Below, in pieces: positions 22,639-49,682 of a stretch of DNA of 50,188 nucleotides. The notes beneath the pieces are model-generated. The model did no database searches. It had not been told where the DNA came from and saw only the letters and a program-made list of their open reading frames with translations. Position 1 is the first letter of the stretch. Every line of letters begins with the position of its first letter. The stretch spans positions 1 through 50,188 of the IMG/VR virus record IMGVR_UViG_3300023251_000002, one strand, 5' to 3'. The DNA is from a virus. A program made the position numbers and the translations under genes.

Positions 22639-22645
22639 GCTCAAA

Positions 22646-23935: not shown

Positions 23936-25379
23936 ACTTATACAGCCACACAGTTTCAATATGGACGAACCCACAGCGAAGCTTATAGAGATCCATTCTA
24001 AAGGTATAGACAGTAACTGGATGTCTAAAAGGGCTGCTATGTTTGACGATATCAAAGATCAGATAAAACCTGAAAAGGGTAAGACCTGTATCCATCTAAT
24101 TACTACTGGGGCTGGGGAAACATATGGAAGTAATAATAACTCTGACTTTTTTAATAAAGAAGCTAGAGAAGTTACTTTCCCGCATCCTAAAAAAGGAGCC
24201 TCTTCTAAAAGGATGCTGGCAGGAGGTCTTAAAGAGTATCATAAGACCTTTATGAAGACCGGGGCTGTATACAAACATCACAAGGATAATAAGGATAAGA
24301 ATAAATCCAGCGGTTCAATTAAATTTGAAACATATAACCCTAAGATGGAACGGGGAGAACTTATTGTTGAACTGGATAATAATAAGTGGGAAAGTGAACT
24401 TAATAAACTCGCTAACGATGAATCGATTTATTTCAGTATTGGGGCTGGGGTTCCATACGATATCTGTTCGATATGTAACAACGTATCAACTACAAGAGAC
24501 CAGTACTGTCATCACATGAAAAATGAAATGCTTCAAATGGACAAGAATGCCAATCAGGTATTTGTCTATAATGATAAACCCGGATTCCACGATATTAGTG
24601 GAGTGTTCCGGCCTGCGGATAAGATTGCCTTCGGACTGCGTAAAGTAGCTAACGGAGTTGTATCTTCCGCGGAACTCGCCGAAATGTCTCGCTATTCGAT
24701 TCCTGTCGAATTCACGGACATCTACCTTACCGGTAAAAAATATGACAGAAGGCAGGTTCTTAAGAAACTTGCCGCTATGGAAGAAGTAATTGACGGGGTG
24801 TCCGATGACAGCCCTCTAGGAATAGCTAAGTACGCTTTTTGCGGTGGCTCCGGATTTGATGAAATATCGCCTAATGTATTATCTAAATTAGGGGCTGACA
24901 CAGATCAGTCCTTGTCCGAGATGGGTAGAGCGAAGGTAGTTTTACCTTTAGAGTTATTTTTTAAGCTCGCTCTCGGAAACAAAGCAGACGAGATTGAACC
25001 TCATATTAAAGAGGCGAAGTCTAAGATGCCGAGTCTTTTTAGGGATATAGAATCAAACGACGGGCTGGACGAGTTCCTGGGGGACGGTACGTATGACGGA
25101 GCACCATGTCTTCTCCGAAACATAAAAGACGAAGTTGGCGGTTTGACCGAGTCCCATTCTCTGGCAGACGAGCCCCTTAGGAAACGCATCACAGTATCGA
25201 TGATTCGTAAGGAGCCCGGGTCGGGACCGTCGGTTGAGACTATTAAGAAAGCTTCTTCGGAAGCTGTTAGTGGTCCCGCCAATTTCCTCGCTAGAGAGTA
25301 CGGTAAGTACTTGCTGTCCTTTTGTAGGGATAAGGAAGAAGATGTTCAGAAATTGGCTGTTGTGCAGAAAGTTGTATAA
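23925..25379 (+). CDS. prohead (capsid maturation) serine protease
   Basis: This 484-residue protein has the herpes-assemblin-like prohead protease pattern known from T4- and SPO1-type and other large phages. GAGETYGSNNNSDFF (residues 62-76) matches the conserved 'N-x-N-x-D' entry. YKHHKDNKDKNKSSGSI holds the probable catalytic His (H118 or H119). After the ERGELIVEL strand, YFSIGAGVPYDICSIC holds the probable nucleophile S171. A C-x-x-C ... C-H-H motif (C181, C184, C195, H196) follows and may bind zinc. The protease would trim capsid, scaffold and core proteins inside the prohead. N-M-S-K-R-A-A near residue 35 and N-K-E-A at 77-80 are candidate self-cleavage sites. The extra C-terminal ~200 residues are not explained. 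Confidence 0.85.
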   Translation: MITKLIQPHSFNMDEPTAKLIEIHSKGIDSNWMSKRAAMFDDIKDQIKPEKGKTCIHLITTGAGETYGSNNNSDFFNKEAREVTFPHPKKGASSKRMLAGGLKEYHKTFMKTGAVYKHHKDNKDKNKSSGSIKFETYNPKMERGELIVELDNNKWESELNKLANDESIYFSIGAGVPYDICSICNNVSTTRDQYCHHMKNEMLQMDKNANQVFVYNDKPGFHDISGVFRPADKIAFGLRKVANGVVSSAELAEMSRYSIPVEFTDIYLTGKKYDRRQVLKKLAAMEEVIDGVSDDSPLGIAKYAFCGGSGFDEISPNVLSKLGADTDQSLSEMGRAKVVLPLELFFKLALGNKADEIEPHIKEAKSKMPSLFRDIESNDGLDEFLGDGTYDGAPCLLRNIKDEVGGLTESHSLADEPLRKRITVSMIRKEPGSGPSVETIKKASSEAVSGPANFLAREYGKYLLSFCRDKEEDVQKLAVVQKVV

Positions 25380-25388
25380 AAAGTATCA

Positions 25389-25407
25389 ATTTTCTACCAT
25401 GGTAGAC
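25389..25407. repeat. 19-bp palindromic element, copy 2 (reverse orientation)
   Basis: The reverse complement of GTCTACCATGGTAGAAAAT, lying just after the protease stop and ahead of the scaffold-like gene, in the intergenic gap. The 14-bp core is a perfect palindrome. Confidence 0.7.
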
Positions 25408-25414
25408 AATTTAG

Positions 25415-25443
25415 TTGCAATTAGGCTTTTTTTAGCTTATTGT
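25415..25443 (+). promoter_or_regulatory. possible promoter for the scaffold/capsid genes
   Basis: TTGCAA, a 17-base spacer, then TATTGT, beginning 8 bases after the palindromic element and ending 38 bases before the scaffold-like ATG. The -10 box is poor, so this is a weak call. The palindrome would lie just upstream of the -35, where a regulator could act. Confidence 0.3.
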
Positions 25444-25481
25444 AAAGAAAAGGTTAAATTAATTAACAGGAGTTTTTTGCC

Positions 25482-26546
25482 ATGCAAAAAATTAGTGATG
25501 AACAGACTTTGTCCTTTATCGACAGTTTCCTCACCGAAGTAAAAGAAGAAAAGACAGCGGAAGAATCTCCGATAACTGTCACGACTTCTGATACCGGAGG
25601 TGAAGCTGCCGGAACCGTTCCAGCATCTGTCGAGGGTAGTGTAGTTAACGATCCTGACAAGACTAAGGAAGAGGAAAAGGCAAGTGAAGGTGCATTCGGA
25701 AAAGAAAAATCAGGGGATTTAGCGGGAGCTATCGCAGCTACTGATGTAGAAGAGCCGAAAGCAGAGAATAACGAAAAGGTGGATAACGAACGAGCCGCTG
25801 GGGATATTAATCAAGGCCCTGTTGAAAGTGCCAAGATCGATACACCGAGTGCTGTTGAAGCCGAGAAAATGAAAGTAGCTGAGGAAAAAGACATGACTAA
25901 CGAATTAAAGAAAGCTCAGGATCTTGGCAATCTCATTTTGTCCAAATACGCTGAGAGTAAACAGGAAGCAGCTCCAGTAGCAGCTCCAGTAGCAGCTCCG
26001 GCAGTTGAAAAGACAGCCGAAGAAAAAGAAATGGACACATTGATCAAAACAGCTGCAGATCAGGCTTATCATGATTTCGTGACAAGTTACGAAGCAGGTC
26101 TTTTGAAAAGAGCTCAGGATGAACAGGATATTCAAGCCGCTCTGGGAGTTTCTCCAGAACAAGCATCAGGAATGCTTGATGAAGTAGCTGCTGAAAATCC
26201 AGAATCTGTAATGCCAGCGGAAGCTCCAGCCGAAGAAGCAATGGCAGAAGCCCCGATGGACGAAGCTCCTGTAGAAGAAGCAATGGGAGAAGCTCCAATG
26301 GAAGAAATGATTCCTGCAGAGGAAATTCCAGCTGGAATACCCGGCGAAGAAGGAATACCTGGCGAAGAAGGACTTCCTGGCGAAGAAGGAATGCCCGGCG
26401 AAGAAGGCGTAGCAGATGAAGAAGCTATTCTTGCAGCCCTAGTAGAAGCAGGAGTAACTCCTGAAGAGCTAGAAGCCGCAGCTATGGAAGTACAGGCGGA
26501 TGAAAGGCATTCAGCTATTAAGGATGCTGTACGCTCCTTAAAGTAG
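25482..26546 (+). CDS. scaffolding-like capsid assembly protein
   Basis: This 354-residue, very acidic protein (Glu/Ala-rich) sits directly after the protease and before the capsid genes, the classic scaffold position. It is helical, with Pro/Ala linkers (AAPVAAPVAAPAVEKTAE) and a tandem GIPGEEG/GLPGEEG/GMPGEEG repeat at about residues 285-310. The C terminus is a short amphipathic basic helix (DERHSAIKDAVRSLK), as used by scaffolds to bind the coat. K-x-A sites VEKTA, IKTAA and LKRAQ suggest proteolytic removal during maturation. CAGGAG precedes the ATG. Confidence 0.7.
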   Translation: MQKISDEQTLSFIDSFLTEVKEEKTAEESPITVTTSDTGGEAAGTVPASVEGSVVNDPDKTKEEEKASEGAFGKEKSGDLAGAIAATDVEEPKAENNEKVDNERAAGDINQGPVESAKIDTPSAVEAEKMKVAEEKDMTNELKKAQDLGNLILSKYAESKQEAAPVAAPVAAPAVEKTAEEKEMDTLIKTAADQAYHDFVTSYEAGLLKRAQDEQDIQAALGVSPEQASGMLDEVAAENPESVMPAEAPAEEAMAEAPMDEAPVEEAMGEAPMEEMIPAEEIPAGIPGEEGIPGEEGLPGEEGMPGEEGVADEEAILAALVEAGVTPEELEAAAMEVQADERHSAIKDAVRSLK

Positions 26547-26555
26547 GGGAATACA

Positions 26556-26864
26556 ATGAGTAATGTAAATAAAGAAGTTGTAGAGTATATCGAAGCTTCT
26601 AATAACATAATCGAAGTTCAGAAACAAACAATCGAAACTCTTCAGAAAGAAGCTTCCGAGAAAAACCGGAAGCTGGAAGAGTACGAAAAAGTTATTTCTG
26701 AAAACGAAAAACAGGTTGCTCAGTCCAAAGAAGTGAAAGCTTCTGAGGACGAGCAAGGTCCCGCCATCTCCTCTTTGGGAGAAGGCAAGAAAAAGGAAAT
26801 TACTACAGACGGAATGCGGAAATCTGAACAAGTACTCTGCGACCGCTTTAGTATTCCATATTAA
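26556..26864 (+). CDS. small coiled-coil protein
   Basis: This 102-residue protein is largely a predicted coiled coil: residues 5-60 show a heptad-like pattern of Ile, Leu and Val (VVEYIEASNNIIEVQKQTI...), rich in Glu and Lys. The C terminus is short and contains one Cys. It is preceded by AGGGGA and placed between scaffold and capsid-associated genes, so a core or assembly accessory protein is plausible. A K-E-A-S site occurs at about residue 32. Confidence 0.6.
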   Translation: MSNVNKEVVEYIEASNNIIEVQKQTIETLQKEASEKNRKLEEYEKVISENEKQVAQSKEVKASEDEQGPAISSLGEGKKKEITTDGMRKSEQVLCDRFSIPY

Positions 26865-26882
26865 TAATAAGGAGATTGAAAA

Positions 26883-27497
26883 ATGGCTGGAACAATCACT
26901 CCAGGTCAGATGTTTGATCATTCTTTAGCTGAACTCAGCGGTCGTTCTACGATGCATGCGTTGGATTTTTCTGCGGCTCCGGCCTCAGGAGAACTAACCT
27001 ACGAAGGTAGCGTGATGACTCTGAATTCGAACGGCGAGTTTGTTGCTGGTATGGGCACGGGTGTAGCTAATACCCAATTGTACCAACATAACGCTCCTAT
27101 GGCAATCTTTATGATCCAGGGAACAAACGAATTCGACGCAAACTCAGACGTAGGTAATATGTCAGGCGGAGTACAATCAGGTATTGTAGCTTCCGGTGGA
27201 TACGAAATCCAATCAACTGAATTTGTTGCTGGTACTTATAACCCTAATGATTTGTTAACTTTTGCTACTGGCGATGACCGTGGCGATGTTACTATTTCTT
27301 CGGATAATTATAGCGACTGTCATGTAGTCGGTGTAGTAAGTAAGGGCACAGAAACTAATGCTGATAACAAGAGCGTACTATCTTTCTGGACTGTTTTCTG
27401 TCCGGCAATAAATAGTTCTCAAACTCCTCTTGATTACAGTTCTAGTTCTAACTCAAGTTCAAGTCAAAGTACTAAATCTAGTTCTAGTACTTCATAA
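26883..27497 (+). CDS. capsid-associated (decoration-like) protein, Ser-tailed, copy 1
   Basis: This 204-residue protein has a beta-rich body (MAGTITPGQMFDHSLAELSG ... VLSFWTVFCPAINSS) and a Ser-rich tail of about 30 residues. It is a tandem duplicate of the next gene: the two share the body almost throughout, including the ribosome-binding region AATAAGGAGATTGAAAAATG. Its position between scaffold and capsid protein suggests a capsid decoration or stabilising protein with an exposed Ser-rich arm. It has no signal peptide. An alternative would be a second coat component. Confidence 0.6.
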   Translation: MAGTITPGQMFDHSLAELSGRSTMHALDFSAAPASGELTYEGSVMTLNSNGEFVAGMGTGVANTQLYQHNAPMAIFMIQGTNEFDANSDVGNMSGGVQSGIVASGGYEIQSTEFVAGTYNPNDLLTFATGDDRGDVTISSDNYSDCHVVGVVSKGTETNADNKSVLSFWTVFCPAINSSQTPLDYSSSSNSSSSQSTKSSSSTS

Positions 27498-27512
27498 TAA
27501 GGAGATTGAAAA

Positions 27513-28235
27513 ATGGCTGGAAACCTAACTCCTGGTCAGATGTTTGATCATTCTTTAATCGAGCTTAGCGGTCGTTCTACGATGCACGCTCTAGACTACT
27601 CAGCTGCTCCGGCATCTGGGGAATTGGTCTATGAAGGCAGTGTAATGACCCTGAATTCGAACGGTGAATTCGTTGCAGGTATGGGCTCAGGTGTGGCTAA
27701 CACGCAGGTTTTCCAGCATAAAGCACCTCTGGCACTCTTTATGATCCAGGGGACGAACGAGTTCGATGCTAATTCAGATGTCGGGAACATGTCCGGTGGA
27801 GCACAGTCAGGTATTGTAGCTTCCGGCGGATATGAAATTCAAACAACTGAGTTCGTCGCAGGTACTTACAATCCTAACGATCTGATGACATTCGCTACCG
27901 GTGCAGACCGCGGTGATGTCACACTCGCTAAGGATAATTATACTGACTGTCATATCGTCGGTGTAGTAAGTAAAGGTACAGAAACTAATGTTGATAACAA
28001 GAGTGTAATATCTTTCTGGACTGTATTTTGTCCAGCAGTGAATAGTTCTAAAAGCCCTCTTGATAATAGTTCTAGCTCTACTTCAAGTAATAGTTCTAGC
28101 TCTAGCTCGACGATTGGTAAGAGTACAAGTTCTCAATCCAGTGATTCTAGTTCAACGATTGGTAAGAGTACAAGTTCTCAATCTAGTTCAACTGAATCTA
28201 GTTCAACAGTTAATAAAAGTACAAGTACTTCTTAA
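27513..28235 (+). CDS. capsid-associated (decoration-like) protein, Ser-tailed, copy 2
   Basis: This 240-residue paralogue of the preceding gene shares conserved blocks such as GQMFDHSL, ELSGRSTMHALD, MTLNSNGEFVAGMG, FMIQGTNEFDANSDVGNMSG and SFWTVFCPA. Its tail is longer (about 65 residues) and contains two copies of STIGKSTSSQSS, encoded by a near-exact DNA repeat. Differing tail lengths on similar bodies suggest the tails evolve by repeat expansion. It probably coats the capsid surface; this is inferred from position. Confidence 0.6.
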   Translation: MAGNLTPGQMFDHSLIELSGRSTMHALDYSAAPASGELVYEGSVMTLNSNGEFVAGMGSGVANTQVFQHKAPLALFMIQGTNEFDANSDVGNMSGGAQSGIVASGGYEIQTTEFVAGTYNPNDLMTFATGADRGDVTLAKDNYTDCHIVGVVSKGTETNVDNKSVISFWTVFCPAVNSSKSPLDNSSSSTSSNSSSSSSTIGKSTSSQSSDSSSTIGKSTSSQSSSTESSSTVNKSTSTS

Positions 28236-28256
28236 AATAGTTAAAGGAGATTAATA

Positions 28257-29261
28257 ATGCAAGATCCAACAACAAGAATGGTTAATGAACAAATCATTAA
28301 CGGTTTCTTGTCTGACGATACCGTCATTCGTAAGGAAGCACAGGAAGGCGTAGAAGATTATCTGCGCATCCGTCTTTATGAAGATGGCTTCGCCCGTAGA
28401 ATTCAGCCTCCGACGAAAGTCGAACCGGCTGACCTCGACCGTCAGGTAGACACTGAGAAACCAGTAATCATCCTTGATAAAGAACCTAATGCTCCTGCAG
28501 CGTATAGCGTACCTTTCGGTACTCTGCCTGTTGGTCATTATATCAAGGGACCGCGCTTCCGCGTAATGTTCGATAGAATCATGTCCCGTAGATTCCGTGC
28601 AGACGTAAACACCCTGCTCACCTACGACATGGATATCAAACAGATCCTGGAAGATATTATCCTCAAACAAATAATGTCCGAAGAAGACCGGAAGTATTTA
28701 TATGTTGTCGACTACATTGTCACGCAGGGATCACCTGCTAATGTAGATGTGGCTGCTGGTCAGGATGCTAACTCTCTGAACACCGAGATTAACGCCTGTC
28801 AAAATATTACGTACAACGGAATCACAAGAGCTAATCTTGCCGAAATGCGTAAAGGTCTGCCTACGACTAATCGTCATCTTAATCCTGCCATGGCGCTGGT
28901 TAATAACATCACTATTTGGGATGTTGTCCAACTCAGTCGCGATAACATTGGTGGAGATTTGGCTGAAGAGATGTTTGTTAACGGATTCTCACAGCAAAAA
29001 ATCATGGGCTTAAATTGGATCGTCACTATCAAGACTGATCTGGTTCCGACTGGTGTAATCTATCAGTTTGCTGAGCCTAAGTATCTTGGTCGTTTCTTCG
29101 TTCTGGACGATGTTACACTGTCCACAAAGAAAGAAGACTTCATGTTGGAATTTTTTGCCTATGAATGTATTGGCGCGGCTGTGGGTAATGCTGCAGCAGT
29201 ATGTCGGGCTGATTTTTCCGGAACGGCAAATCATAGCTGGGAAAATGGGGCGGTTATTTAA
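28257..29261 (+). CDS. major capsid protein (probable)
   Basis: This 334-residue protein follows protease, scaffold and decoration-like genes and is followed by a strong terminator, the usual place of the major coat gene. It has an excellent ribosome binding site (AAAGGAGA). The N terminus (residues 1-28) ends in V-I-R-K-E-A, matching the K-E-A end of the packaging tags, and so may be a short delta-like segment removed by the prohead protease. The body has the mixed alpha/beta character of HK97-fold coats, with a long helical middle (DMDIKQILEDIILKQIMSEE) and a C-terminal beta-rich domain. The fold is inferred, not demonstrated. Confidence 0.72.
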   Translation: MQDPTTRMVNEQIINGFLSDDTVIRKEAQEGVEDYLRIRLYEDGFARRIQPPTKVEPADLDRQVDTEKPVIILDKEPNAPAAYSVPFGTLPVGHYIKGPRFRVMFDRIMSRRFRADVNTLLTYDMDIKQILEDIILKQIMSEEDRKYLYVVDYIVTQGSPANVDVAAGQDANSLNTEINACQNITYNGITRANLAEMRKGLPTTNRHLNPAMALVNNITIWDVVQLSRDNIGGDLAEEMFVNGFSQQKIMGLNWIVTIKTDLVPTGVIYQFAEPKYLGRFFVLDDVTLSTKKEDFMLEFFAYECIGAAVGNAAAVCRADFSGTANHSWENGAVI

Positions 29262-29300
29262 TATAACTACTTCAGTATAAACCAAGTATGTAGATATTCA

Positions 29301-29339
29301 AATCCTCCTTTTGAGTAAATTCAGAAGGAGGATTTTTTT
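29301..29339 (+). terminator. strong intrinsic terminator after the capsid gene
   Basis: AATCCTCCTT (29301-29310) pairs perfectly with AAGGAGGATT (29325-29334), with a 14-base loop and a run of seven T. It separates the head operon from the accessory island. Confidence 0.88.
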
Positions 29340-29360
29340 AGCTATTTTTTAAAGTTATAC

Positions 29361-29389
29361 TTGATAAAGTCAATTATATAGGGTATATT
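29361..29389 (+). promoter_or_regulatory. sigma70-like promoter for the homing endonuclease
   Basis: TTGATA, a 17-base spacer and TATATT, followed by AAAAGGAGG and the ATG at 29411. It has the best spacing of the TATATT-type promoters in the window. Confidence 0.65.
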
Positions 29390-29410
29390 AAGTAAAAGGA
29401 GGATTTTAAA

Positions 29411-30430
29411 ATGAAACAAGATATGATTGAATCAATCATTAACATGTACGTGCACGAAGGAATTGGCTGCCCTAAGATAGCCAAAATATTGGGGCTTACG
29501 AATTTCATAGTCCGTAATCGTTTGTTAAAAGAGGGTATCACAATTAGGTCTAAAAAAACCGCCACGAAGTTTAGAATACCTGAGGAGGTAAAACAGAATA
29601 TAATAAAAGACTATTTAGAAAATACTCTATCCGAGCCAGAATTGGTAAAGAAATATAATCTATCGAAGTCTACTTTAAATAGACGTTTAAAAGAATGGGA
29701 AAAAATAAGAAGCCATTCTGAAGCTCATAGACAGTATGCTGTGGATGAAGAGTATTTTGGTGATGTATTAAATGAAGAGAAGTTATATTTTTTAGGTCTT
29801 CTATACGCAGATGGGTGTTGTACGGGAGGAGAGATAGTATTAGGACTTATAGAAAAGGATAAACATATTTTAGATTTCTATAACAACAAACTTCACGAAG
29901 GTAAAAAACCCCTTACATATATAGCTCCTTATATTGGTAAAGAAGGATTTACCAGCAGCCCTTACTATAGATTAGTTATACATAATCAAAAACTATATAA
30001 GAAGGCTCAGGAACTAGGTGTTGTAGAGAGAAAAACATTTAAGCTTACCTTTCCAGACTGGATACCCCCAGCCCTTCAACATCATTTTATACGGGGATAC
30101 ATAGATGGGGACGGGTGTTTCCTTTTTTCAAAAAGGAAGGATAATCATGGTACTTATAATACGCGCATAGAGTTAATATCAACCCAGCCCTTCTGTGCTT
30201 CAGTACAGAATATACTGGAAGACAATAAAATACTTTCAAGTATAAAACCATGTAACAAAATATATAGGCTTAATATCTTCAATCGCATAAACCTAAAGCG
30301 CACCATAGAATACCTATACAAGGATGCTACTATCTATCTACCCAGAAAGAAAGAGAAGGCTGATCAGATACTGGAGTACATCGACAGTATCCCTGAGGAG
30401 TATCAGTTCGATTGTAATCACATAGAATAA
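29411..30430 (+). CDS. free-standing LAGLIDADG homing endonuclease
   Basis: This 339-residue protein has two helix-turn-helix-like N-terminal segments (GIGCPKIAKILGLTNFIVRN, and SEPELVKKYNLSKSTLNRRL) that probably bind DNA, then two LAGLIDADG motifs: LYFLGLLYADG (about residues 132-142) and HHFIRGYIDGDG (about 230-241). The acidic residues ending each motif are the expected metal ligands. Such enzymes cut a target site and spread by repair. It has its own promoter and lies just after the capsid gene, in a region of accessory genes. It is not inside an intron or intein that I can see. The target site is unknown. Confidence 0.88.
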   Translation: MKQDMIESIINMYVHEGIGCPKIAKILGLTNFIVRNRLLKEGITIRSKKTATKFRIPEEVKQNIIKDYLENTLSEPELVKKYNLSKSTLNRRLKEWEKIRSHSEAHRQYAVDEEYFGDVLNEEKLYFLGLLYADGCCTGGEIVLGLIEKDKHILDFYNNKLHEGKKPLTYIAPYIGKEGFTSSPYYRLVIHNQKLYKKAQELGVVERKTFKLTFPDWIPPALQHHFIRGYIDGDGCFLFSKRKDNHGTYNTRIELISTQPFCASVQNILEDNKILSSIKPCNKIYRLNIFNRINLKRTIEYLYKDATIYLPRKKEKADQILEYIDSIPEEYQFDCNHIE

Positions 30431-30474
30431 CGCCTTTTCAGCATGCCTGAATATGCTTAATTTATCGCGTTTTT

Positions 30475-30502
30475 TTGTCAGTATATACTAGAGGATTATA
30501 CC
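30475..30502 (+). promoter_or_regulatory. type A promoter-like element, copy 2, upstream of the structured RNA
   Basis: TTGTCA, then GTATATACT, then TATACC after a 16-base spacer: the same layout as at 12974 and 30862. If the true -10 is TATACT (30484-30489), transcription would begin at about 30496, exactly at the start of the RNA's closing helix. Confidence 0.55.
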
Positions 30503-30837
30503 TCACCTGTGAAAGTAGTAAGTTTTCCTAGTGAAAACATTAGACAGATATCACAGGGGACAATAAGTAATCTGTCGCCGTTCCTATGCTGAATTGTCTT
30601 GAAAAGCATAGGGGAACTCTTGCCTGGTGGGTTCTATCGGGTTGCCTTTAGTGAGGTATAAAAAGGGAAAGAATCTTTCCTGACACTGAGATGCCCACCT
30701 TAAAATGGGACCTCCTGGAATTTACCAATCCAGGATGCACTGTATCCCACTAAGGGAGTGCAGTATGGATGAGCGGGGAGATAGGTGCTCTGTGGTAGAG
30801 AGTGGCTCCCACTTAGAAGGATTAATCCCCTTCTTTT
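30497..30837 (+). ncRNA. unidentified structured non-coding RNA, about 340 nt
   Basis: No reading frame of note occupies this stretch, but helices are dense. TATACCTCAC (30497-30506) pairs perfectly with GTGAGGTATA (30651-30660), closing a 5' domain. Inside it are GTTTTC/GAAAAC (30522/30533), CCTGTGA/TCACAGG (30506/30551) interleaved with GACAGAT/ATCTGTC (30543/30570), which implies a pseudoknot, and GTTCC-TATGCT/AGCATA-GG-GGAAC (30580/30605). The 3' domain has GGAAAG/CTTTCC (30666/30675), TCCTGG/CCAGGA (30713/30730), TGCACT/AGTGCA (30736/30757), GGGAG/CTCCC enclosing CTCT/AGAG (30776/30806), then a terminator. I compared it mentally with RNase P, tmRNA, 6S, group I and group II signatures and found no match. 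Its role is unknown; the strand is inferred from promoter and terminator. Confidence 0.72.
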
Positions 30838-30838
30838 A
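30815..30838 (+). terminator. intrinsic terminator of the structured RNA
   Basis: AGAAGG (30815-30820) pairs with CCTTCT (30829-30834) around an 8-base loop, followed by a short T run. It is shorter than the other terminators here. Confidence 0.55.
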
Positions 30839-30861
30839 GCTACTTAATAAAGCTCCCTTTC

Positions 30862-30889
30862 TTGGCATTATATACTAGAAATATATAAC
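30862..30889 (+). promoter_or_regulatory. type A promoter-like element, copy 3
   Basis: TTGGCA, then TTATATACT, then TATAAC after a 16-base spacer. It matches the element at 12974 at 25 of 28 positions and precedes the 30910 gene, whose ribosome binding site (GTGGGGA) is modest. Confidence 0.65.
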
Positions 30890-30909
30890 CATTAAATAAG
30901 TGGGGAATT

Positions 30910-31620
30910 ATGATAAAGACAATAATGAGTTGGTTATTCGGGTCATCTATTGACCCTAATGAATATTATGATACTACAAACTTAAAAGGTTTCTCTAAGT
31001 CTGTAGCTACAAAAAAGAGCACAGCCCGCACAGGCAAATCAAGTCCATTAACACAGACAAGTAAACCTAAGCCAAGCACCATCGATTCAAGCAGCGTAAG
31101 CAAAACTAAAGCTAATTATTCAGTAGCTAATAGACTGGCTATGATGAATATTGCAATAGGCCAGGTTCCCGGAGAGTTATCATATATAAATGTTAAAAAA
31201 GGAACATCTATGCTTGATATCTTGATAATAGCCGAGGTACATCATTTATATACTTCGGGGGCGTTTATTTTAAAGCTTAACGGGGCTGAAGTAGATTTGG
31301 ATTCTGTAGTACAGGACGGCAGCAATATATTTCTGGTAAAGAAATATGGAGCTTTTTCAAGGTCCAAACCTATAAAAAAATATAATATGAGTACTTTAGA
31401 GTGCTGGTACTGTGGCCATAAGTGGGGTAGTAAAACTGTTGTACCGCTGTCTAGATATTCAGGCCCGTGCCCATCTAGTTGTCCTGCTTGTGACACCCAG
31501 TGCTGTCCAAATTGTGGGGGTCAGATGGGTAAAGCAGTAGACGACGGTGGTGATATGGATGAGTACACAAATGGAGGATGTCATAACTGTGATTATACAT
31601 GTTGTGGCGGATGTATTTAA
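30910..31620 (+). CDS. beta-grasp-like and zinc-ribbon accessory protein, 236 aa
   Basis: The N-terminal ~80 residues are basic, Ser/Thr/Lys-rich and probably disordered. Residues ~90-150 resemble a ubiquitin/ThiS-like beta-grasp unit: GTSMLDILIIAEVH, then FILKLNGAEVDLDSVVQDG and SNIFLVKKYG, recalling the 'VNG..VDLD..L.DGD.I.LV' pattern of that fold. The C-terminal ~80 residues are Cys-rich zinc-ribbon repeats: ECWYCGHKW, CPSSCPACDTQCCPNCGG and CHNCDYTCCGGCI. The combination suggests a binding or modification adaptor. It ends CGGCI, so it lacks a free Gly-Gly end of a canonical modifier. It starts its own transcription unit in the accessory island. The function is unproven. Confidence 0.6.
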   Translation: MIKTIMSWLFGSSIDPNEYYDTTNLKGFSKSVATKKSTARTGKSSPLTQTSKPKPSTIDSSSVSKTKANYSVANRLAMMNIAIGQVPGELSYINVKKGTSMLDILIIAEVHHLYTSGAFILKLNGAEVDLDSVVQDGSNIFLVKKYGAFSRSKPIKKYNMSTLECWYCGHKWGSKTVVPLSRYSGPCPSSCPACDTQCCPNCGGQMGKAVDDGGDMDEYTNGGCHNCDYTCCGGCI

Positions 31621-31636
31621 AAAAAGGAGAAGAAGT

Positions 31637-31963
31637 ATGATTAGAAAAGGTTACATGTTTAAGTTCGAAGATATTATTCTAAACCGAATACACAAGGTCT
31701 ATGTCTACAGAGATGAACAGAGCGATGAGGTAGATAATAGATTAGCTAGTACAGACGAGCTCATAAGCATAGTCCCCATCTCAGTGGAATATGGTACCCC
31801 ATTAGATGAACAGGGCTGTGAAAGTCTTGTGAAAATCATAGAAAAAAATAGAGAGATTCAGCATACCAAATTAATAGTGGAGAAGATGTCTAGGGAACTA
31901 ACCACTGTCAAAAGGGAGTTGAAAACCCTTAAAAAGGGAGAGAGGAAGTATGGACAGACATAG
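31637..31963 (+). CDS. hypothetical accessory protein with C-terminal coiled coil
   Basis: I take the ATG at 31637, which follows AAAAAGGAGAAG; the open frame begins at 31547, but that part lies inside the preceding gene. The product is 108 residues. The N half is beta-like (VYVYRDEQ ... ISIVPISVEYG) and residues ~60-105 form a charged coiled-coil helix (LVKIIEKNREIQHTKLIVEK ... ELKTLKKGERK). It overlaps the next gene by 14 bases. The function is unknown. Confidence 0.6.
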   Translation: MIRKGYMFKFEDIILNRIHKVYVYRDEQSDEVDNRLASTDELISIVPISVEYGTPLDEQGCESLVKIIEKNREIQHTKLIVEKMSRELTTVKRELKTLKKGERKYGQT

Positions 31964-32375
31964 CAAAGGAGTAGTCTGGGGAAAGATGTCCAGTGAAGAG
32001 CATAAAGAGATAATAAAAGCAGGACACGTTCAGAGATATGAGGACGATGATATAGGATGGATGATATTAATAAATGAGTCCTGGAGGGATAAGGAGAGTG
32101 TACCGGTATATCATTGGTCTGAGTACTATTTCCTGGATTATCAGGCATACTGGTCTCACAAACTTAAATTAGTATCTGACAAAGTTAAGTCTAATGCTAT
32201 TATTCCTTTAGGGCTTATGTCAGACAAGGAACGCAAAGAAATAAAGAAAGAATTTAAGAAGGATTTTACGAATGTAGAAATGTATTGGGGTGGTCCTGAA
32301 CAATGGTGGAGACCACATAATGCACAAACCGATGGAATCTTTCTTAATTCATATCAACCATACAGATTAAAATAA
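31950..32375 (+). CDS. hypothetical accessory protein, 141 aa
   Basis: The gene overlaps the previous stop and is preceded by GAGAGGAAG. It is soluble, with mixed charge and rich in aromatic residues, especially Trp and Tyr (WGKMSS, WMILINESW, YHWSEYYFLDYQAYW, YWGGPEQWW). No catalytic motif is recognised. It is in the accessory island and has no tag, so it is probably active in the cell rather than carried in the virion. The function is unknown. Confidence 0.6.
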   Translation: MDRHSKGVVWGKMSSEEHKEIIKAGHVQRYEDDDIGWMILINESWRDKESVPVYHWSEYYFLDYQAYWSHKLKLVSDKVKSNAIIPLGLMSDKERKEIKKEFKKDFTNVEMYWGGPEQWWRPHNAQTDGIFLNSYQPYRLK

Positions 32376-32389
32376 AAAGGAGAGGAAGC

Positions 32390-32689
32390 ATGGGAGTTCA
32401 AATTCCAATGAAGGTCGGTCATTCGATAAGCTTTTGTATCGGAGATATCTGTAAAGAAGAAGTTCTCATTAACGAAGTGAATCACATAGAGGGAAACACC
32501 TCTGTGGTAGATCCACAGGTACGTGAGAACTGGCAGAAAGTTATCGACCAGTACAAGAAGGTGTACTGGAAAGACTTTCCAGAGAAGGCGGAAGAAGTAT
32601 TTAACCGTCTTTTCCAGGAAGGAAGAATATTACAACGTTTTCCGGGTAAAGAACATCTTTCCGGAGAGGATTGGAAGAAGTGGGATTAA
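32390..32689 (+). CDS. hypothetical accessory protein, 99 aa
   Basis: AAAGGAGAGG precedes the ATG. The small soluble protein contains two Cys (FCIGDICKEE) in its N half and a helical C half (ENWQKVIDQYKKVYWKDFPEKAEEVFNRLFQEG). The stop codon lies in the terminator stem, so transcription ends with this gene. No family is recognised. Confidence 0.6.
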   Translation: MGVQIPMKVGHSISFCIGDICKEEVLINEVNHIEGNTSVVDPQVRENWQKVIDQYKKVYWKDFPEKAEEVFNRLFQEGRILQRFPGKEHLSGEDWKKWD

Positions 32690-32701
32690 TCCCACTTTTT
32701 T
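32678..32701 (+). terminator. intrinsic terminator overlapping the 32390 gene stop
   Basis: AAGTGGG (32678-32684) pairs with CCCACTT (32691-32697), loop ATTAAT, then T residues to 32701. The stem contains the last codons and the TAA of the gene. Confidence 0.85.
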
Positions 32702-32742
32702 AGCTATAACACAATTCAGATGTAAATATATAGAATAACAAC

Positions 32743-32770
32743 TTGAATAATAAACCTTCCATACTATATT
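32743..32770 (+). promoter_or_regulatory. sigma70-like promoter ahead of the 32777 gene
   Basis: TTGAAT, a 16-base spacer, then TATATT. The next ATG is only six bases after the -10 box, so the transcript would begin at or very close to the start codon. Confidence 0.55.
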
Positions 32771-32776
32771 AAATAT

Positions 32777-33049
32777 ATGTACTTATCTAACGCATTACTC
32801 GGTTATTATCATTCTTTAAGACATAAGGATGAATATAACGGACGACCTATTCAGGAGGTAAAAGACGAACTCCTGGGAATAGTGAAGAAAGATTATCCGG
32901 AAATAACACACGAGATATTAAAAGAAGTTCTATATGCTAATGTCTGGTGTGGAGATTACTGCTGCTGGGATGGAACCTTTACGGATGGTAAAGGCGAAGT
33001 AGGAGTAGTGATAGATGCTCTGGGTAAAGAATTTAATATGGCGCAGTAG
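32777..33049 (+). CDS. hypothetical accessory protein, probably leaderless
   Basis: This 90-residue protein starts at ATG 32777 directly after a TATATT -10 box, with no room for a ribosome binding site, so translation is expected from a leaderless transcript. No other ATG in the frame gives a sensible protein. Features are LLGYYHSLRHKDEYNG, and a Trp/Cys-rich segment NVWCGDYCCWDG. It ends at 33049, inside the first ten bases of the tRNA gene. The function is unknown. Confidence 0.5.
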   Translation: MYLSNALLGYYHSLRHKDEYNGRPIQEVKDELLGIVKKDYPEITHEILKEVLYANVWCGDYCCWDGTFTDGKGEVGVVIDALGKEFNMAQ

Positions 33050-33116
33050 ACGAATTGGTAGAGTCACCAGGTTTTCATCCTGGAGTTTGCGGGTTCAAGT
33101 CCCGTCTGCGCTTCCA
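33040..33116 (+). tRNA. tRNA-Glu (anticodon UUC), CCA encoded
   Basis: The 77 bases fold as a full cloverleaf. GGCGCAG pairs with CTGCGCT (one G-T pair), the D arm is GAC...GTC, the anticodon stem CCAGG/CCTGG encloses TTTTCAT (anticodon TTC), and the T arm is GCGGG-TTCAAGT-CCCGT, followed by T and CCA. It overlaps the end of the 32777 gene by ten bases. It would read GAA and GAG, and GAA is a common Glu codon in this phage. Confidence 0.93.
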
Positions 33117-33150
33117 ATTTTTAATTCGCAATATATTACAGGAGGTTTAT

Positions 33151-33552
33151 ATGAACGTTACAACAGAGGAATCTTTTAAGAAGTTTATCGGTTATTGTGA
33201 ACACTGGGTGAATTATTTTAGTCTATCGGACATAGAATTTTTTTATTTTCACGAAGTGATGTCCGGTGAAGAGGCTGATGATATGGCTACATGTGTTTAT
33301 GGATATTTAGATGCTGTGGCTAATGTTACTCTTAATAAAAACTGGGGGAACTCTAAGGTCACAGATGCTATGCTTAAGAACGCGGCTTTTGAGGAGATAG
33401 CACATGCTTTACTAGGCCCTATAGATGTACTTGCCAGAGATCGTACTTTTAATGAATCTATGCTGGAGTCCGAGATACATCGTGTTATACGCAGACTGTA
33501 TAAGATCATACTCAAAGATAGAGCCCTCAAGAAGACTGCAACTTCTTCTTAG
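33151..33552 (+). CDS. metallopeptidase-like protein with altered HExxH motif
   Basis: The start at 33151 has GGAGG 5 bases upstream; the open frame extends back to 33055 but runs through the tRNA. The 133-residue protein resembles small phage HExxH-type proteins: a Trp-rich start (WVNYFSLSDIEFFYF), a beta strand ANVTLNKNWGN, then AAFEEIAHALLGPIDVLAR and a C-terminal Glu-rich helix (MLESEIHRVIRRLYKI). The family motif would be H-E-x-x-H, but here it reads E-E-I-A-H, so the first metal ligand is replaced. The protein may be inactive, bind differently or have a non-catalytic role. The family assignment is from memory of the pattern. Confidence 0.5.
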   Translation: MNVTTEESFKKFIGYCEHWVNYFSLSDIEFFYFHEVMSGEEADDMATCVYGYLDAVANVTLNKNWGNSKVTDAMLKNAAFEEIAHALLGPIDVLARDRTFNESMLESEIHRVIRRLYKIILKDRALKKTATSS

Positions 33553-33559
33553 ACAATAG

Positions 33560-33588
33560 TTGTAAACACTTGATAAAATAGCTATATT
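33560..33588 (+). promoter_or_regulatory. sigma70-like promoter for the 33628 tail genes
   Basis: TTGTAA, a 17-base spacer, then TATATT, 39 bases ahead of the ATG at 33628, which has an AGGAG site. It would restart structural-gene transcription after the accessory island. Confidence 0.5.
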
Positions 33589-33627
33589 AATTAGATAAAC
33601 CAAATTTAAATCAGGAGCAGGAAAAAC

Positions 33628-34434
33628 ATGATTGTGCAGACGAAAATTATTAATCCAACGGATAGTAAACAGCATTACAGCTGGGTTCCTAAGTACGGGC
33701 TGTATATCGCGGCTAAAGACGAAGTCATTATCGACGGAGATATTTACACCTTATCAGCCAGTGTTGTTAAGGATAGGAAATGTATCGACGAAGATATCAG
33801 GACGAAGAGGGTCGAGATTATTATGCTCACAGACCTCCAGGTCGAGAGCATCGAGGAGGCTGTCAAACCAGCCCCAAAAGTAGTGAAACCTAAACCAGCC
33901 CCGAAACCCCCTGTACCTATGTCGAGGAATATCAAAGAAGACGAAGAGCTTCCTCCCGACGAAGAGCCTACCAGAGTTACGGCACCTAAGGGTACTTTCT
34001 CAGAGATTCAGAACGAAGAACTTCCTCGTATACCTGCAGAGCCTATTAGAGATGCGGATCTATCTATCGCTCCGACTCCTATGCCGAAAGAAAAAAAATC
34101 TGATAGAAGTATTGTCGACGAAGTATTCGACATTGCTAATATCCAAAGCGACGATATTCCGAAAGACATACCCATCGAAGTAGAAGTATACAAAGAACCT
34201 GACTTTATCGACCGGGACGAGGAAATCAATATCCTCGGAAAAGGGCTGGTAGACGGAAGTATCGAAGACAACAAGTCACAAGCTCTCGATCCTTTTACAG
34301 GGGAAGTTTTAAAGAACGATCTTCCTAAAGCGGAGAGTGTCAGCGACTTTTTATGGGGCGGAGACGACGAAGATGTTGTCGACGAAAGTACATCCTCAAG
34401 TACCGAAGAAGAATCTTCTCCGTGTGCCGAATAA
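33628..34434 (+). CDS. putative structural protein with Pro/Lys and acidic linker, 268 aa
   Basis: AGGAG precedes the ATG. Residues 1-75 form a compact beta-like domain (KQHYSWVPKYGLYIAAKDEVIIDG) rich in Lys and hydrophobics. The rest is low-complexity: a Pro/Lys stretch (KPAPKVVKPKPAPKPPVP), acidic segments, and an end in STSSSTEEESSPCAE, the first of the Ser-rich tails in this region. Its position at the head of the tail/fibre genes suggests a virion surface or connector protein. No family is recognised. Confidence 0.55.
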   Translation: MIVQTKIINPTDSKQHYSWVPKYGLYIAAKDEVIIDGDIYTLSASVVKDRKCIDEDIRTKRVEIIMLTDLQVESIEEAVKPAPKVVKPKPAPKPPVPMSRNIKEDEELPPDEEPTRVTAPKGTFSEIQNEELPRIPAEPIRDADLSIAPTPMPKEKKSDRSIVDEVFDIANIQSDDIPKDIPIEVEVYKEPDFIDRDEEINILGKGLVDGSIEDNKSQALDPFTGEVLKNDLPKAESVSDFLWGGDDEDVVDESTSSSTEEESSPCAE

Positions 34435-34465
34435 AATATAACCAGTATTATAAGGAATATAGAAA

Positions 34466-34762
34466 ATGGCTTTAACTTTAGAAAGACATACAGGCGGGAC
34501 TCCTTCACACGCGGCTGTCACTATTGTCAGTACGGAGATAGTTGCTAATAATCTCAACAGGGGTTATTGCCTTATTCAGAACGACAGTGCTGTTACAATG
34601 TATATTGCTCTGAATGCTCCGGCTGTTCTTAACAGCGGGATACGTCTGAACGCGGGCGGAGGCTCTTACGAGATAAACTATACGAATCTCTTTACAGGGC
34701 CTATATATGCTATTCACGGCGGAGCGGGTAATGCTAACGCCTGTATACAGGAAGGCCGTTAA
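34466..34762 (+). CDS. small virion surface-type protein, 98 aa
   Basis: AAGGA lies upstream of the ATG. The short beta-rich protein (RGYCLIQNDSAVTMYIALNA, then IRLNAGGGSYEINYTNLFTG) resembles the small phage proteins that carry a fibre or decoration-type beta-sandwich, but the match is by character only. It lies between two other tail-region genes with short gaps. There is one Cys in each half and no signal peptide. Confidence 0.5.
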   Translation: MALTLERHTGGTPSHAAVTIVSTEIVANNLNRGYCLIQNDSAVTMYIALNAPAVLNSGIRLNAGGGSYEINYTNLFTGPIYAIHGGAGNANACIQEGR

Positions 34763-34781
34763 TCTTCTACGGAGTTACTAA

Positions 34782-35504
34782 ATGCCTATTCTCAATCCGA
34801 ATGTGGATATTTATCAGGGAGGACGGGGCTGGGGAATCTACAATTTTGTAGAGTTTATCCCACCCCCTGCGACTCAGTCTTCAAGTTCTTCCAGCAGTAC
34901 GGAAGTTCTGACGACTTCTTCCAGTAACTCCAGTAGCTCAAGCTCAAGTAATTCCAGCAGCTCAAACACAAGCAGTTCCAGCAATTCAAGCTCCAGCAGC
35001 TCCAGTTCCAGCAGTTCCAGCAGCTCCAGCAGTACAGAAGCCATGACGACAAGCTCCAGCAGCTCCAGCAGTACAGAAGTAATGACGACAAGTTCTTCAA
35101 GCAGTACAGTAAACAAGTCATCAAGTTCAAGCTCTTCAAGCAGTACGGAAGAGTTAACCACCAGTTCAAGTTCAAACAGTTCAAGCAGTACGGAAGTATT
35201 AACTACAAGTTCTTCAAGTAATTCCAGTAGTTCCAGCAGTACAGAAGTATTAACCACCAGTTCGAGTTCAAGCAGTAGTTCTAACTCGTCAAGCAGTTCT
35301 TCAAGCAGTCAGAGTTCTTCAAGCAGTACAGAAGCAAGGACTACCAGTTCCAGCGACTCAAGCAGCTCCAGCGAATTCGATGCTGTTTTAGGTTTGAATG
35401 CCGGAGGATCTTTACTGATTAATGCCGGAGGTTTTCTTAAACTCAACAACGAGGATACACTAAGTACTTCCTCGGAAGATATAACCAGTTCGAGTACATC
35501 TTAA
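34782..35504 (+). CDS. poly-serine virion protein, 240 aa
   Basis: The short N-terminal domain (MPILNPNVDIYQGGRGWGIY...) is followed by about 165 residues almost entirely of Ser with Asn, Thr and periodic STEVLTTSS or STEVMTTSS units. The C terminus (GLNAGGSLLINAGGFLKLNN) is a small Gly-rich segment, ending in EDITSSSTS. Ser codons are varied (AGT, AGC, TCA, TCT, TCC), so the composition is maintained at protein level. Very long Ser/Thr runs are typical O-glycosylation targets in other systems; a glycosyltransferase gene lies at the window end. It may be a short fibre or spacer. Confidence 0.65.
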   Translation: MPILNPNVDIYQGGRGWGIYNFVEFIPPPATQSSSSSSSTEVLTTSSSNSSSSSSSNSSSSNTSSSSNSSSSSSSSSSSSSSSSTEAMTTSSSSSSSTEVMTTSSSSSTVNKSSSSSSSSSTEELTTSSSSNSSSSTEVLTTSSSSNSSSSSSTEVLTTSSSSSSSSNSSSSSSSSQSSSSSTEARTTSSSDSSSSSEFDAVLGLNAGGSLLINAGGFLKLNNEDTLSTSSEDITSSSTS

Positions 35505-35519
35505 TAAAAGGATATAGAA

Positions 35520-37697
35520 ATGAGTAATACATTAGTAAAAGATATGGATTCCGAATCAACCCTCGGAAATACAGATCTGGTATATGTCTCCACAGACGAA
35601 GGGGGAGGTACCTTTCTGGATGCAAAAATGTCAGCAACCGACCTCAGGGCTAACGTTTCCCCACAACTCGGGAATGTTGTCTGGGTAACTACAGCGGGTA
35701 GCGATTCTACAGGAGACGGCACTTCGGAAAAATCATATGCGAGTATTAAATATGCATTAAGCCAGATCACGGATAACGATACAACTCATAGATATACTAT
35801 TTTAGTTGGTCCCGGAGTATTTACCGAGGACAATCCTATTACATGTAAAAGTTATGTCGATATACGTGGAATAGGTGGGGCATATACTGTTAAAGTTGTT
35901 GCTCAGAATGTTAATAGTAATATTTTGAATCTGGCAGTATTAGCAAGTGTTGATGATATTACCTTCTCCGGTTGTACCGGTGCAACTGCTTTATATATGG
36001 CTGGAGCAGTAGGAGCGGCTAATATAAATAGATGTACAATTCAGGATTGCCAGACAGGTGTTGGATTAAATAGTATAACAGGTGGTATTACTTCACACGA
36101 TCTTACATTTTTCACTACTCCGGTAGTTGGCTCTATTACAACAGGAGTGCATGTTCAGGCAGGAACTATTTCATTGTTCAATACGGAAGGTGTGAACACT
36201 CCGTCAATAACAACAGTTTTTAAGATAGAGGGTGCTAATTCCAGTGGTAATATCGACGGAGCATATTTAATAGCTACAGGTACAAACGGGCTGTATTGTG
36301 ATAATGGATGTACATTCGGTTGCTCAAGTATGACAATCAGTGGCTTTACAAATTCAATAAGAATTGGAAGTACCGGAGCTACAGACCTTACAATATATAA
36401 TTCAAAAACAGCTAACTCCGGAACGTACGATTTACTGATTGAATCCGCTACAGCTATTTTTGATGGGTGTTCTATTGAAGTGACTAGAGATAAAACATCT
36501 ATAGCTAGTGGTGCAGATGTTCATACATTTGGACACGATCATTCACTGGATGCACTTAGTGTTTTACAGGATTTAAAAGTAGGACAGGACGGCATTGGAA
36601 ACAAAAGTGCCTTTGGTGAAGGTGGTTCTTATAATTTTAATACAAAGGTTATTACATATAACCCTACAGGGGCTGTATACGCTGATGAAACAGACAGTGC
36701 CAACATAAACTTCCCGAGTACTCTTCAGAATGCAGCTATTTATTTCGGAGATATAGATTCCTTTCAGTTTCACGGGCTGGGATATATAATGGGTAATACG
36801 GATCTTCTGGGGGGGACACTTGTCTGGGAGTATTATGACGGGGGTCCTAACGATTGGTTGGAATTTGACATAATGCATACTATAAGTGATTATAGTGATA
36901 GAGTAGACCAGTTCACAGGTATAGATGGTACTAAATATACTTTTAGATTGGATTGTTCTTTAACTGCAGGTGTTACAGAAAGTGATGCCTCGGCTACAGG
37001 ATGGGTACCAAATATTATAGATGGAGATTCAGGCTATTGGGTAAGATGTCGTGTAGCTACAGCTATTACGACTTCTATGAATTTTTCAACTGTTCGGTTT
37101 AAAGGTAACTATACAGAGATAAGAGATAACGGAACTATCTCTCATCACGGAGATGCCCGTACTTCTAAGGATAATCAAATATTACTTTTTGAGGTGGAAG
37201 GTACAGCTGCAGATACTAAAAATCTTAATATCTCAACTAATATATTACTCGTAAAGATAAAAAAGAGTTTGTTTAAAAATGGTGATCTGGATAAAATATA
37301 TTTCCGTACAGCAATATTAGACGGCATGGATGTAAGTTGCGGTCTTGATTGGACTGCGAAGGTGTTTACAGATGTAGCACCTTCCGGAGCTGATCAGACA
37401 GCGAAACTACATCTAACATATGCTAAAATAAAAAATGGTGATGCATATGTTAATACTAACCCTGATTCTACCCAATTAATAACTGTTACAATACCCGACG
37501 GAAATACGTCTAATGAAATACAGACAGTAGTTGCTACAGACAGGTTGGATATCTCCGATCTAGAAGCGGGGGATGAAGTATGGGGCATGGTGTATAGAGA
37601 AGCTAATGAAGCAGGGGATGATCTGGCCGGAGATTTATCTATATCTAATGAATGGATTACTTATTCAAAATGGCAAACAGGATCAACCTACGCATAA
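35520..37697 (+). CDS. tail spike with right-handed beta-helix fold (probable)
   Basis: This 725-residue protein has a short N-terminal anchor, then DSTGDGTSEKSYASIKYALS (about residues 65-82) and LVGPGVFTEDNPITCKSYVD followed by IRGIGG, the typical entry of pectin-lyase-like parallel beta-helix proteins. Repeated short strands continue to about residue 320. The C-terminal ~370 residues contain further beta-rich domains (for example TYDLLIESATAIFDG; TKYTFRLDCS). Such spikes bind and often cleave surface polysaccharide; no catalytic residues can be identified here. AAAAGGA precedes the ATG. Confidence 0.7.
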   Translation: MSNTLVKDMDSESTLGNTDLVYVSTDEGGGTFLDAKMSATDLRANVSPQLGNVVWVTTAGSDSTGDGTSEKSYASIKYALSQITDNDTTHRYTILVGPGVFTEDNPITCKSYVDIRGIGGAYTVKVVAQNVNSNILNLAVLASVDDITFSGCTGATALYMAGAVGAANINRCTIQDCQTGVGLNSITGGITSHDLTFFTTPVVGSITTGVHVQAGTISLFNTEGVNTPSITTVFKIEGANSSGNIDGAYLIATGTNGLYCDNGCTFGCSSMTISGFTNSIRIGSTGATDLTIYNSKTANSGTYDLLIESATAIFDGCSIEVTRDKTSIASGADVHTFGHDHSLDALSVLQDLKVGQDGIGNKSAFGEGGSYNFNTKVITYNPTGAVYADETDSANINFPSTLQNAAIYFGDIDSFQFHGLGYIMGNTDLLGGTLVWEYYDGGPNDWLEFDIMHTISDYSDRVDQFTGIDGTKYTFRLDCSLTAGVTESDASATGWVPNIIDGDSGYWVRCRVATAITTSMNFSTVRFKGNYTEIRDNGTISHHGDARTSKDNQILLFEVEGTAADTKNLNISTNILLVKIKKSLFKNGDLDKIYFRTAILDGMDVSCGLDWTAKVFTDVAPSGADQTAKLHLTYAKIKNGDAYVNTNPDSTQLITVTIPDGNTSNEIQTVVATDRLDISDLEAGDEVWGMVYREANEAGDDLAGDLSISNEWITYSKWQTGSTYA

Positions 37698-37718
37698 TAC
37701 CCGGAGAAAGGGAATACA

Positions 37719-38444: not shown

Positions 38445-38454
38445 GAGAAGCAGA

Positions 38455-39231: not shown

Positions 39232-39255
39232 AAAAGCATATAATCAGACTATATT
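39227..39255 (+). promoter_or_regulatory. weak sigma70-like promoter ahead of 39273
   Basis: TTTAAA, a 17-base spacer, then TATATT, followed by AGGAG and the ATG at 39273. The -35 match is poor; the -10 and its TAAATA extension match the 32743 element. Confidence 0.35.
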
Positions 39256-39272
39256 AAATACAGGAGCGAAAC

Positions 39273-40277: not shown

Positions 40278-40283
40278 GTAAAT

Positions 40284-40568: not shown

Positions 40569-40580
40569 GGAATACCGGCA

Positions 40581-46214: not shown

Positions 46215-46301
46215 ATAACATAATCAGAAACAATTTAATGCGATTCTTGAAAGAAGAGGACTTACAGCCAATATTAATAGAAGGCTGTTAATAACATAAA
46301 A

Positions 46302-46320: not shown

Positions 46321-46324
46321 TAAA

Positions 46325-49642: not shown

Positions 49643-49682
49643 CTAACTTAATTGGAGAACTTCAGGAGGCTCGTAGACTGTA

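What the first reader, a model, noticed from the sequence alone, without database searches (positions are those of the whole stretch)
30497..30837. Unrecognised, highly structured ~340-nt RNA gene
At least nine helices can be drawn by eye, including a perfect 10-bp closing helix, an 11-bp helix with a GG bulge and interleaved 7-bp helices that imply a pseudoknot. A promoter-like element lies at its 5' end and a terminator at its 3' end. It sits next to a homing endonuclease and accessory genes, without an ORF, and matches no RNA class I know.
Basis: partly seen in the sequence, partly recalled or inferred. Interest (0 to 1): 0.85.

Follow-up and report, generated by a model that had tools for sequence, protein, structure and literature searches.

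The report
Phage structured RNA gene, unknown family
A large bacteriophage carries what looks like a free-standing gene for a folded RNA of about 340 bases that belongs to no known family; it has the same type of promoter as a known RNA-antitoxin motif in the same phage, so it may help the phage to disarm its host, but this is untested.

Summary
The named features exist: window 30497-30837 can form an 11-bp closing helix, an H-type pseudoknot and a helix with a GG bulge, and has no convincing ORF. Folding energy is not exceptional (z about -2.3; 11 of 80 random windows of this phage are as low). The strongest evidence lies outside it. The window is part of a ~185-kb phage (IMGVR_UViG_3300005936_000001, identical where compared) with 16 copies of a 42-bp promoter motif (35-54 bits; next best site 13.9). 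One copy ends three bases before the closing helix; a weak terminator hairpin closes the RNA, directly before another copy. So it probably is its own transcription unit (about 0.8). No Rfam, blastn, nhmmer or covariance-model relative was found, so covariation could not be tested. Other promoter copies lead further ORF-poor stretches; one holds an abiF RNA motif (36.6 bits, just under the gathering score of 37), the RNA antitoxin of AbiF, although the phage shows no Abi_2 protein. abiF RNA without Abi_2 also occurs in other phages. Best guess: an RNA that counteracts a host defence by mimicry or sequestration (0.33), by association only.

The parts
30451..30492 (+). 42-bp phage promoter motif (-35-like CTTAAT 30456-30461, 17-nt spacer, -10-like CAGTAT 30479-30484; transcript start predicted near 30491)
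   Evidence: One of 16 copies in the 185-kb phage, 47.9 bits; best non-member site 13.9 bits; the -35/-10 reading is inference
30491..30838 (+). candidate non-coding RNA gene (about 348 nt)
   Evidence: Bounded by promoter and terminator-like hairpin; no convincing ORF; no Rfam family
30496..30661 (+). 5' domain closed by the perfect 11-bp helix P1 (30496-30506 / 30651-30661)
   Evidence: z -3.23 for this domain
30506..30576 (+). H-type pseudoknot: S1 30506-30512/30551-30557, S2 30543-30549/30570-30576, hairpin 30522-30527/30533-30538 in loop 1
   Evidence: chance estimates
30580..30617 (+). P3: 11-bp helix with GG bulge
30626..30699 (+). possible second pseudoknot GGTGGG 30626-30631 / CCCACC 30694-30699 crossing P1
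   Evidence: competes with other pairings in the MFE fold
30665..30762 (+). 3' domain hairpins: 30665-30671/30675-30681, 30713-30719/30729-30735, 30736-30741/30757-30762
   Evidence: 3' domain z -1.72, weakly supported
30815..30838 (+). weak intrinsic terminator: AGAAGG 30815-30820 / CCTTCT 30829-30834, then TTTA
   Evidence: hairpins before TTCTTTTA recur in the phage; not reported by the generic scan
30838..30879 (+). second copy of the promoter motif, before the gene at 30910
   Evidence: 49.8 bits
29411..30430 (+). LAGLIDADG homing endonuclease gene upstream (phrog_4645, E 3e-50)
30910..31620 (+). 236-aa cysteine-rich protein without a family above cut-off, own promoter copy

Best explanation
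It is an independently transcribed phage non-coding RNA of about 348 nt. It belongs to a set of accessory units behind one phage promoter type, and it most likely acts during infection as a protein-binding RNA that neutralises a host defence factor (an RNA antitoxin or decoy), as the abiF RNA of the same promoter set is expected to do. Steps: promoter set (shown by sequence); terminator (weak, shown by sequence); independent transcription and non-coding nature (inferred); compact pseudoknotted 5' domain (predicted from one sequence); binding to a host protein and counter-defence (inferred by association only; target unknown).
For: 16 copies of the promoter, clearly separated from all other sites, one at each end of the RNA. 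Hairpin-TTCTTTTA ends like that of this RNA close two other units of the set, G001 128039 and 129111 (the first of these units may encode a 34-aa protein). A unit behind the same promoter (G001 116610) holds an abiF RNA motif, E 1.5e-4, 36.6 bits, gathering score 37, with the 24-base core intact, while no Abi_2 protein was found in the phage. abiF RNA neutralises AbiF in trans by direct binding in C. difficile (PMC12373285, abstract and passages). abiF RNA without Abi_2 is seen in other phages: 0 of 16 IMG/VR records (G001 included; several are fragments, some are near copies) and 0 of 8 phage records examined show Abi_2, while a plasmid with abiF RNA has the gene. The RNA lies in an accessory block: in 5 of 7 other loci with a similar capsid gene, a relative of the gene at 33628 follows the capsid gene. 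Conserved early promoters have been used to find anti-defence genes in archaeal viruses (PMC11065993, abstract).
Against: No sequence link between this RNA and any defence-system RNA; the function rests on guilt by association. The promoter also drives proteins, nearly all of unknown function. No relatives, so no covariation; folding energy unexceptional. The abiF hit in this phage is just under the gathering score, and that unit as a whole does not fold better than shuffles (z +0.14). An RNA ligase gene starts 316 bases after promoter 112378, but a terminator-like hairpin lies between, so it does not count as support. The terminator of the RNA is weak. No expression data; host unknown.
Confidence: 0.33

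Rival explanations
1. An 'ornate' phage RNA in the manner of GOLLD or ROOL: a free-standing structured RNA with a structural or host-takeover role (RNA-only complex, ribosome or polymerase binding), not a defence decoy.
For: Own promoter and terminator-like end, possible pseudoknots, phage accessory region with a tRNA gene 2.2 kb downstream. ROOL and GOLLD are phage RNAs of unknown function, often near tRNA islands (PMC12286853, passages).
Against: Much shorter than GOLLD (many members over 800 nt, PMC12286853), no Rfam match, no relatives found, folding energy ordinary.
Confidence: 0.3
2. A regulatory small RNA or antisense RNA of the phage that controls phage or host genes by base pairing; the long folded body is mostly a stability scaffold.
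For: Discrete promoter-terminator unit; ordinary folding energy.
Against: Blastn of the RNA against its own genome listed no complementary match longer than 18 bases; the length is unusual for such RNAs (recalled).
Confidence: 0.2
3. A coding or decaying stretch: a short peptide gene (24-44 aa within 30705-30839) or degenerate sequence left by insertion of the homing endonuclease.
For: ATG at 30765 with GGAG upstream; homing endonuclease adjacent.
Against: The frame runs through the terminator hairpin and its stop lies in the T tail; an intact promoter copy flanks the stretch on each side.
Confidence: 0.1

Closest known systems
abiF RNA / RCd22 (Rfam RF03085), RNA antitoxin of AbiF (Abi_2)
   Same: Phage-borne RNA; in this phage an abiF motif sits behind the same promoter type
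   Different: The RNA of the finding has no abiF motif and no Rfam match; partner unknown
pseudo-ToxI of phage PhiTE (PMC3475682, abstract read)
   Same: Proposed principle: phage non-coding RNA that mimics a defence RNA
   Different: ToxI-type RNAs are tandem repeats; none found here
Racr, RNA anti-CRISPRs (PMC10651486, abstract read)
   Same: Proposed principle: solitary phage RNA that poisons a defence complex
   Different: Racrs mimic CRISPR repeats; such similarity was not tested here
GOLLD and ROOL (PMC12286853, passages read)
   Same: Phage RNAs of unknown function, often near tRNA genes
   Different: No Rfam match, shorter, no covariation evidence

Membership tests
Any Rfam 15 family (4227 models; group I intron and tmRNA models are among them) | Score at or above the family's gathering score | tested here: not met
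   only a tRNA at 33040 in the whole window. (E up to 10): two sub-threshold hits, E 0.53 and 3.8. (E up to 5): one sub-threshold hit on this RNA, E 1.2
GOLLD / ROOL | Match to the Rfam model | tested here: not met
   that Rfam holds these models is taken from a passage of PMC12286853
abiF RNA (RF03085) | 37-nt hairpin with CTCTCAACGATGCT core | tested here: not met
   Not in the RNA of the finding; a just-sub-threshold hit is at G001 116610 (L086 35-71)
Type III toxin-antitoxin RNA | Tandem repeats of the antitoxin unit | tested here: not met
   No tandem or direct repeats reported in the RNA
Group I intron | Conserved core and an interrupted gene | tested here: not met
   No RF00028 hit here, although the model fires elsewhere in the same phage; no interrupted gene is apparent
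Racr (RNA anti-CRISPR) | Similarity to a CRISPR repeat of the host | not tested
   Host unknown
RNA decoy or antitoxin against a host defence | Binding and neutralising a host protein | not testable with these tools
   Needs bench work

The most novel reading that the evidence does not exclude
The phage carries a dedicated regulon of structured RNAs behind one promoter type, each aimed at a different RNA-dependent host defence: one at AbiF (an orphan abiF RNA), and the 348-nt pseudoknotted RNA at a defence whose natural RNA is not yet known. Phage orphan RNAs could then serve as a hunting ground for undiscovered RNA-guided or RNA-antitoxin defences.
Probability: 0.2. Interest if true: 0.85.

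Novelty: new variant of a known kind. Interest (0 to 1): 0.55.

Why it matters
If the RNA is made, it is a phage RNA gene without any catalogued relative, in a promoter-defined set that also contains an orphan RNA-antitoxin motif. A single 42-bp motif then lists the candidate RNA genes of this phage and gives a testable idea of what they do. The wider pattern, abiF RNA without a recognisable AbiF in several unrelated phages, suggests RNA antidotes as a recurring phage counter-defence.

Tried and rejected
Known RNA class: rejected. Relatives by DNA: blastn in phages gave only a 22-nt match, E 0.5, in two records of equal length (the surrounding locus was fetched and not studied further); none in plasmids or E. 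coli. Relatives by synteny: 8 loci with a similar capsid gene, one of them the same phage; the 7 others gave only short chance-level matches, and their whole records nothing better than 20 bases at E 0.043. nhmmer found nothing in intergenic stretches of 110 nt or more of G002-G008, nor in G009 and the other loci. Exact words of 16-17 bases of the RNA: 9 and 3 viral loci (one in each list is the phage itself) and 21 loci in species genomes; of the 31 other loci none had an nhmmer E-value below 0.26. A covariance model of the 5' domain, built from two identical copies, found in 76 sources (1.3 Mb) one hit at E 1.8 that lies inside reading frames, and in the phage itself only the RNA and one hit at E 7.3. 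Single-sequence models and exact words are weak tools, so absence of relatives is not proven.

The neighbouring 236-aa protein gave only the same phage in IMG/VR, the endonuclease the same phage and one partial match.

The unit at G001 127882 was first taken as a second RNA gene; it holds a 34-aa ORF with a weak SD that ends before the terminator, so it may be a small protein gene.

The RNA ligase gene after promoter 112378 was first counted as part of the set; a terminator-like hairpin lies between, so I dropped it as evidence and lowered the best explanation from 0.35 to 0.33.

abiF core pattern in 369 genomes of one class: no match. RF03085 in four bacterial genomes: no match, and no control rang. 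These say nothing on hosts.

Full report
Where it lies. The window (50,188 bases) is a virus record. IMGVR_UViG_3300005936_000001 (185,256 bases, here G001) is identical to it where compared: window 22257-32392 and window 32283-50188 (17,906 bases, no mismatch). The two ends of G001 thus overlap by 110 bases, as in a circular or circularly permuted genome of about 185.1 kb. The capsid gene (28257-29261, phrog_2522) has about 28% identity to those of Salmonella phage Arash and three Vibrio phages. In 5 of 7 other loci with a similar capsid gene, a relative of the gene at 33628 follows it, so 29262-33627 looks like an accessory block: homing endonuclease, the RNA, a cysteine-rich protein, small ORFs and tRNA-Glu.

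The observation. The named helices exist. As an energy argument the claim is modest: z -2.3 to -2.5, reached by 11 of 80 random 341-nt windows of the phage; five perfect stems of 7 bp or more are reached by 284 of 1000 shuffles. The domain closed by P1 has z -3.23, but 30496-30640 and 30662-30810 taken alone have z -1.27 and -0.81. An H-type pseudoknot enclosed by a stem of at least 9 bp occurs in 15 of 5000 shuffles and 7 of 2000 random windows, a criterion chosen after seeing the RNA.

Promoter set. The 3' end of the RNA recurs in the phage. Comparing such places gave a 42-bp motif containing GCTTAATTAAnnCnnTTTTTTGGCATWATATAYTA. A weight matrix of 16 sites scores these at 35.5-54.3 bits and every other place in 186 kb, both strands, at 13.9 or less (the 16 are the sites that the matrix was built from, but the gap is wide). 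All 16 are on one strand. One copy ends at window 30492, three bases before helix P1; another starts at 30838, right after the terminator-like hairpin of the RNA, and precedes the gene at 30910. Seven of the 16 are followed by more than 130 nt without a convincing gene start, if a 34-aa ORF at 127882 is left aside (65033, 73113, 96932, 116610, 127882, 128870, 183339). Three of these (127882, 128870 and 183339, the finding) end in a hairpin and TTCTTTTA directly before the next promoter copy. Folding z: 65033 -4.36, 127882 -3.1, 73113 -2.0, 128870 -1.65, 96932 -0.18, 116610 +0.14. Of 11 proteins downstream of promoter copies that were scanned, one is an RNA ligase (behind a terminator-like hairpin), one matches a PHROG of unknown function, and the others have weak or no matches. 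Exact pattern scans of IMG/VR found the promoter in few other contigs: five contigs whose copies have the same downstream bases as copies of G001, and a 159-kb phage (G009, L050) where a copy precedes an ORF-poor stretch with a long hairpin and a terminator-like end. Weaker look-alikes are in G007 and G009.

An RNA antitoxin in the set. The unit at 116610 matches abiF RNA (RF03085) with E 1.5e-4 and 36.6 bits, gathering score 37. No Abi_2 protein was found in the phage. The exact core occurs in 16 IMG/VR stretches, this phage included; of 15 stretches scanned, 10 reach the gathering score and 5 (L094, L095, L096, L098, L102) do not; L105 was not scanned. None of the 16 records shows Abi_2; several are short fragments, some are near copies of each other, and in the 14 named control genomes the family rang once and never over its cut-off. 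In sequenced phages 47 records match an abiF query by blastn, 37 of them mycobacteriophages. I examined 8 phage records: 7 reach the gathering score, Arthrobacter phage Mimi does not, and none of the 8 shows Abi_2. Of two plasmid records examined, OY726013 has two abiF RNAs and an Abi_2 gene (E 4.9e-52), the expected pair and a positive control; NZ_CP016620 shows neither. The abiF RNA of Clostridioides difficile neutralises its toxin in trans by binding (PMC12373285, abstract and passages). Cyanophage S-CREM1 was already reported with an abiF RNA (PMC9964418, passages), and AbiD/F is elsewhere said to co-occur with an RNA of unknown function (PMC12165695, one passage). In the listings of searches I saw no paper that reads phage abiF RNA as counter-defence; the listed papers were not all opened, and the library holds open papers only.

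What the RNA probably does. Shown by sequence: promoter set, weak terminator, no family. Inferred: independent transcription, non-coding, folded 5' domain. By association only: a role against host defence. Rivals are an ornate phage RNA with a structural role, a base-pairing regulator, and a coding or decaying stretch.

Against my reading. No relative of this RNA was found in 50,697 phage records, 72,556 plasmids, 5,426 E. coli genomes, the fetched relatives, or by exact words in IMG/VR and species genomes; so no covariation. The promoter also drives proteins. The ordinary folding energy leaves room for a less ordered RNA. The host is unknown.

Noticed in passing
G001 116610-116850 (L086): Orphan abiF RNA motif (36.6 bits, gathering 37) behind the shared promoter; no Abi_2 found in the phage.
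   Followed up: yes
L091-L106, L173-L180: abiF RNA motif without Abi_2 in other phages, several beside tRNA genes and two between scaffold, portal/collar or capsid genes; in L091, L093 and L101 it seems by eye to start a longer shared RNA.
   Followed up: partly
L088 (G001 128870-129140): Second candidate RNA gene of about 245 nt with the same promoter and terminator type; no family, no phage match; a GTG-started 59-aa frame runs through its terminator.
   Followed up: partly
L083 (G001 65030-65200): About 130-nt stretch closed by a long end-to-end helix, z -4.4 to -4.6, behind the shared promoter; only a 26-nt match at E 0.4 in phages.
   Followed up: partly
L034 19261-19515 (G001 98861-99115): Group I intron (RF00028, 58.9 bits) in the same phage.
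   Followed up: no
L050 5052-5240: Another phage with the promoter followed by an ORF-poor stretch holding a long hairpin and a terminator-like end.
   Followed up: partly
L140 1451-1519: Short stretch scoring as tmRNA (RF00023, 56.3 bits, 69 bases across the whole model) in the phage of L050.
   Followed up: no
window 26883-28235: Two tandem paralogous genes, 86% identical over 184 residues, with serine-rich tails.
   Followed up: no
window 30910-31620: Cysteine-rich protein; related stretches occur twice in L044 3261-3659 (about G001 100445-100843).
   Followed up: no
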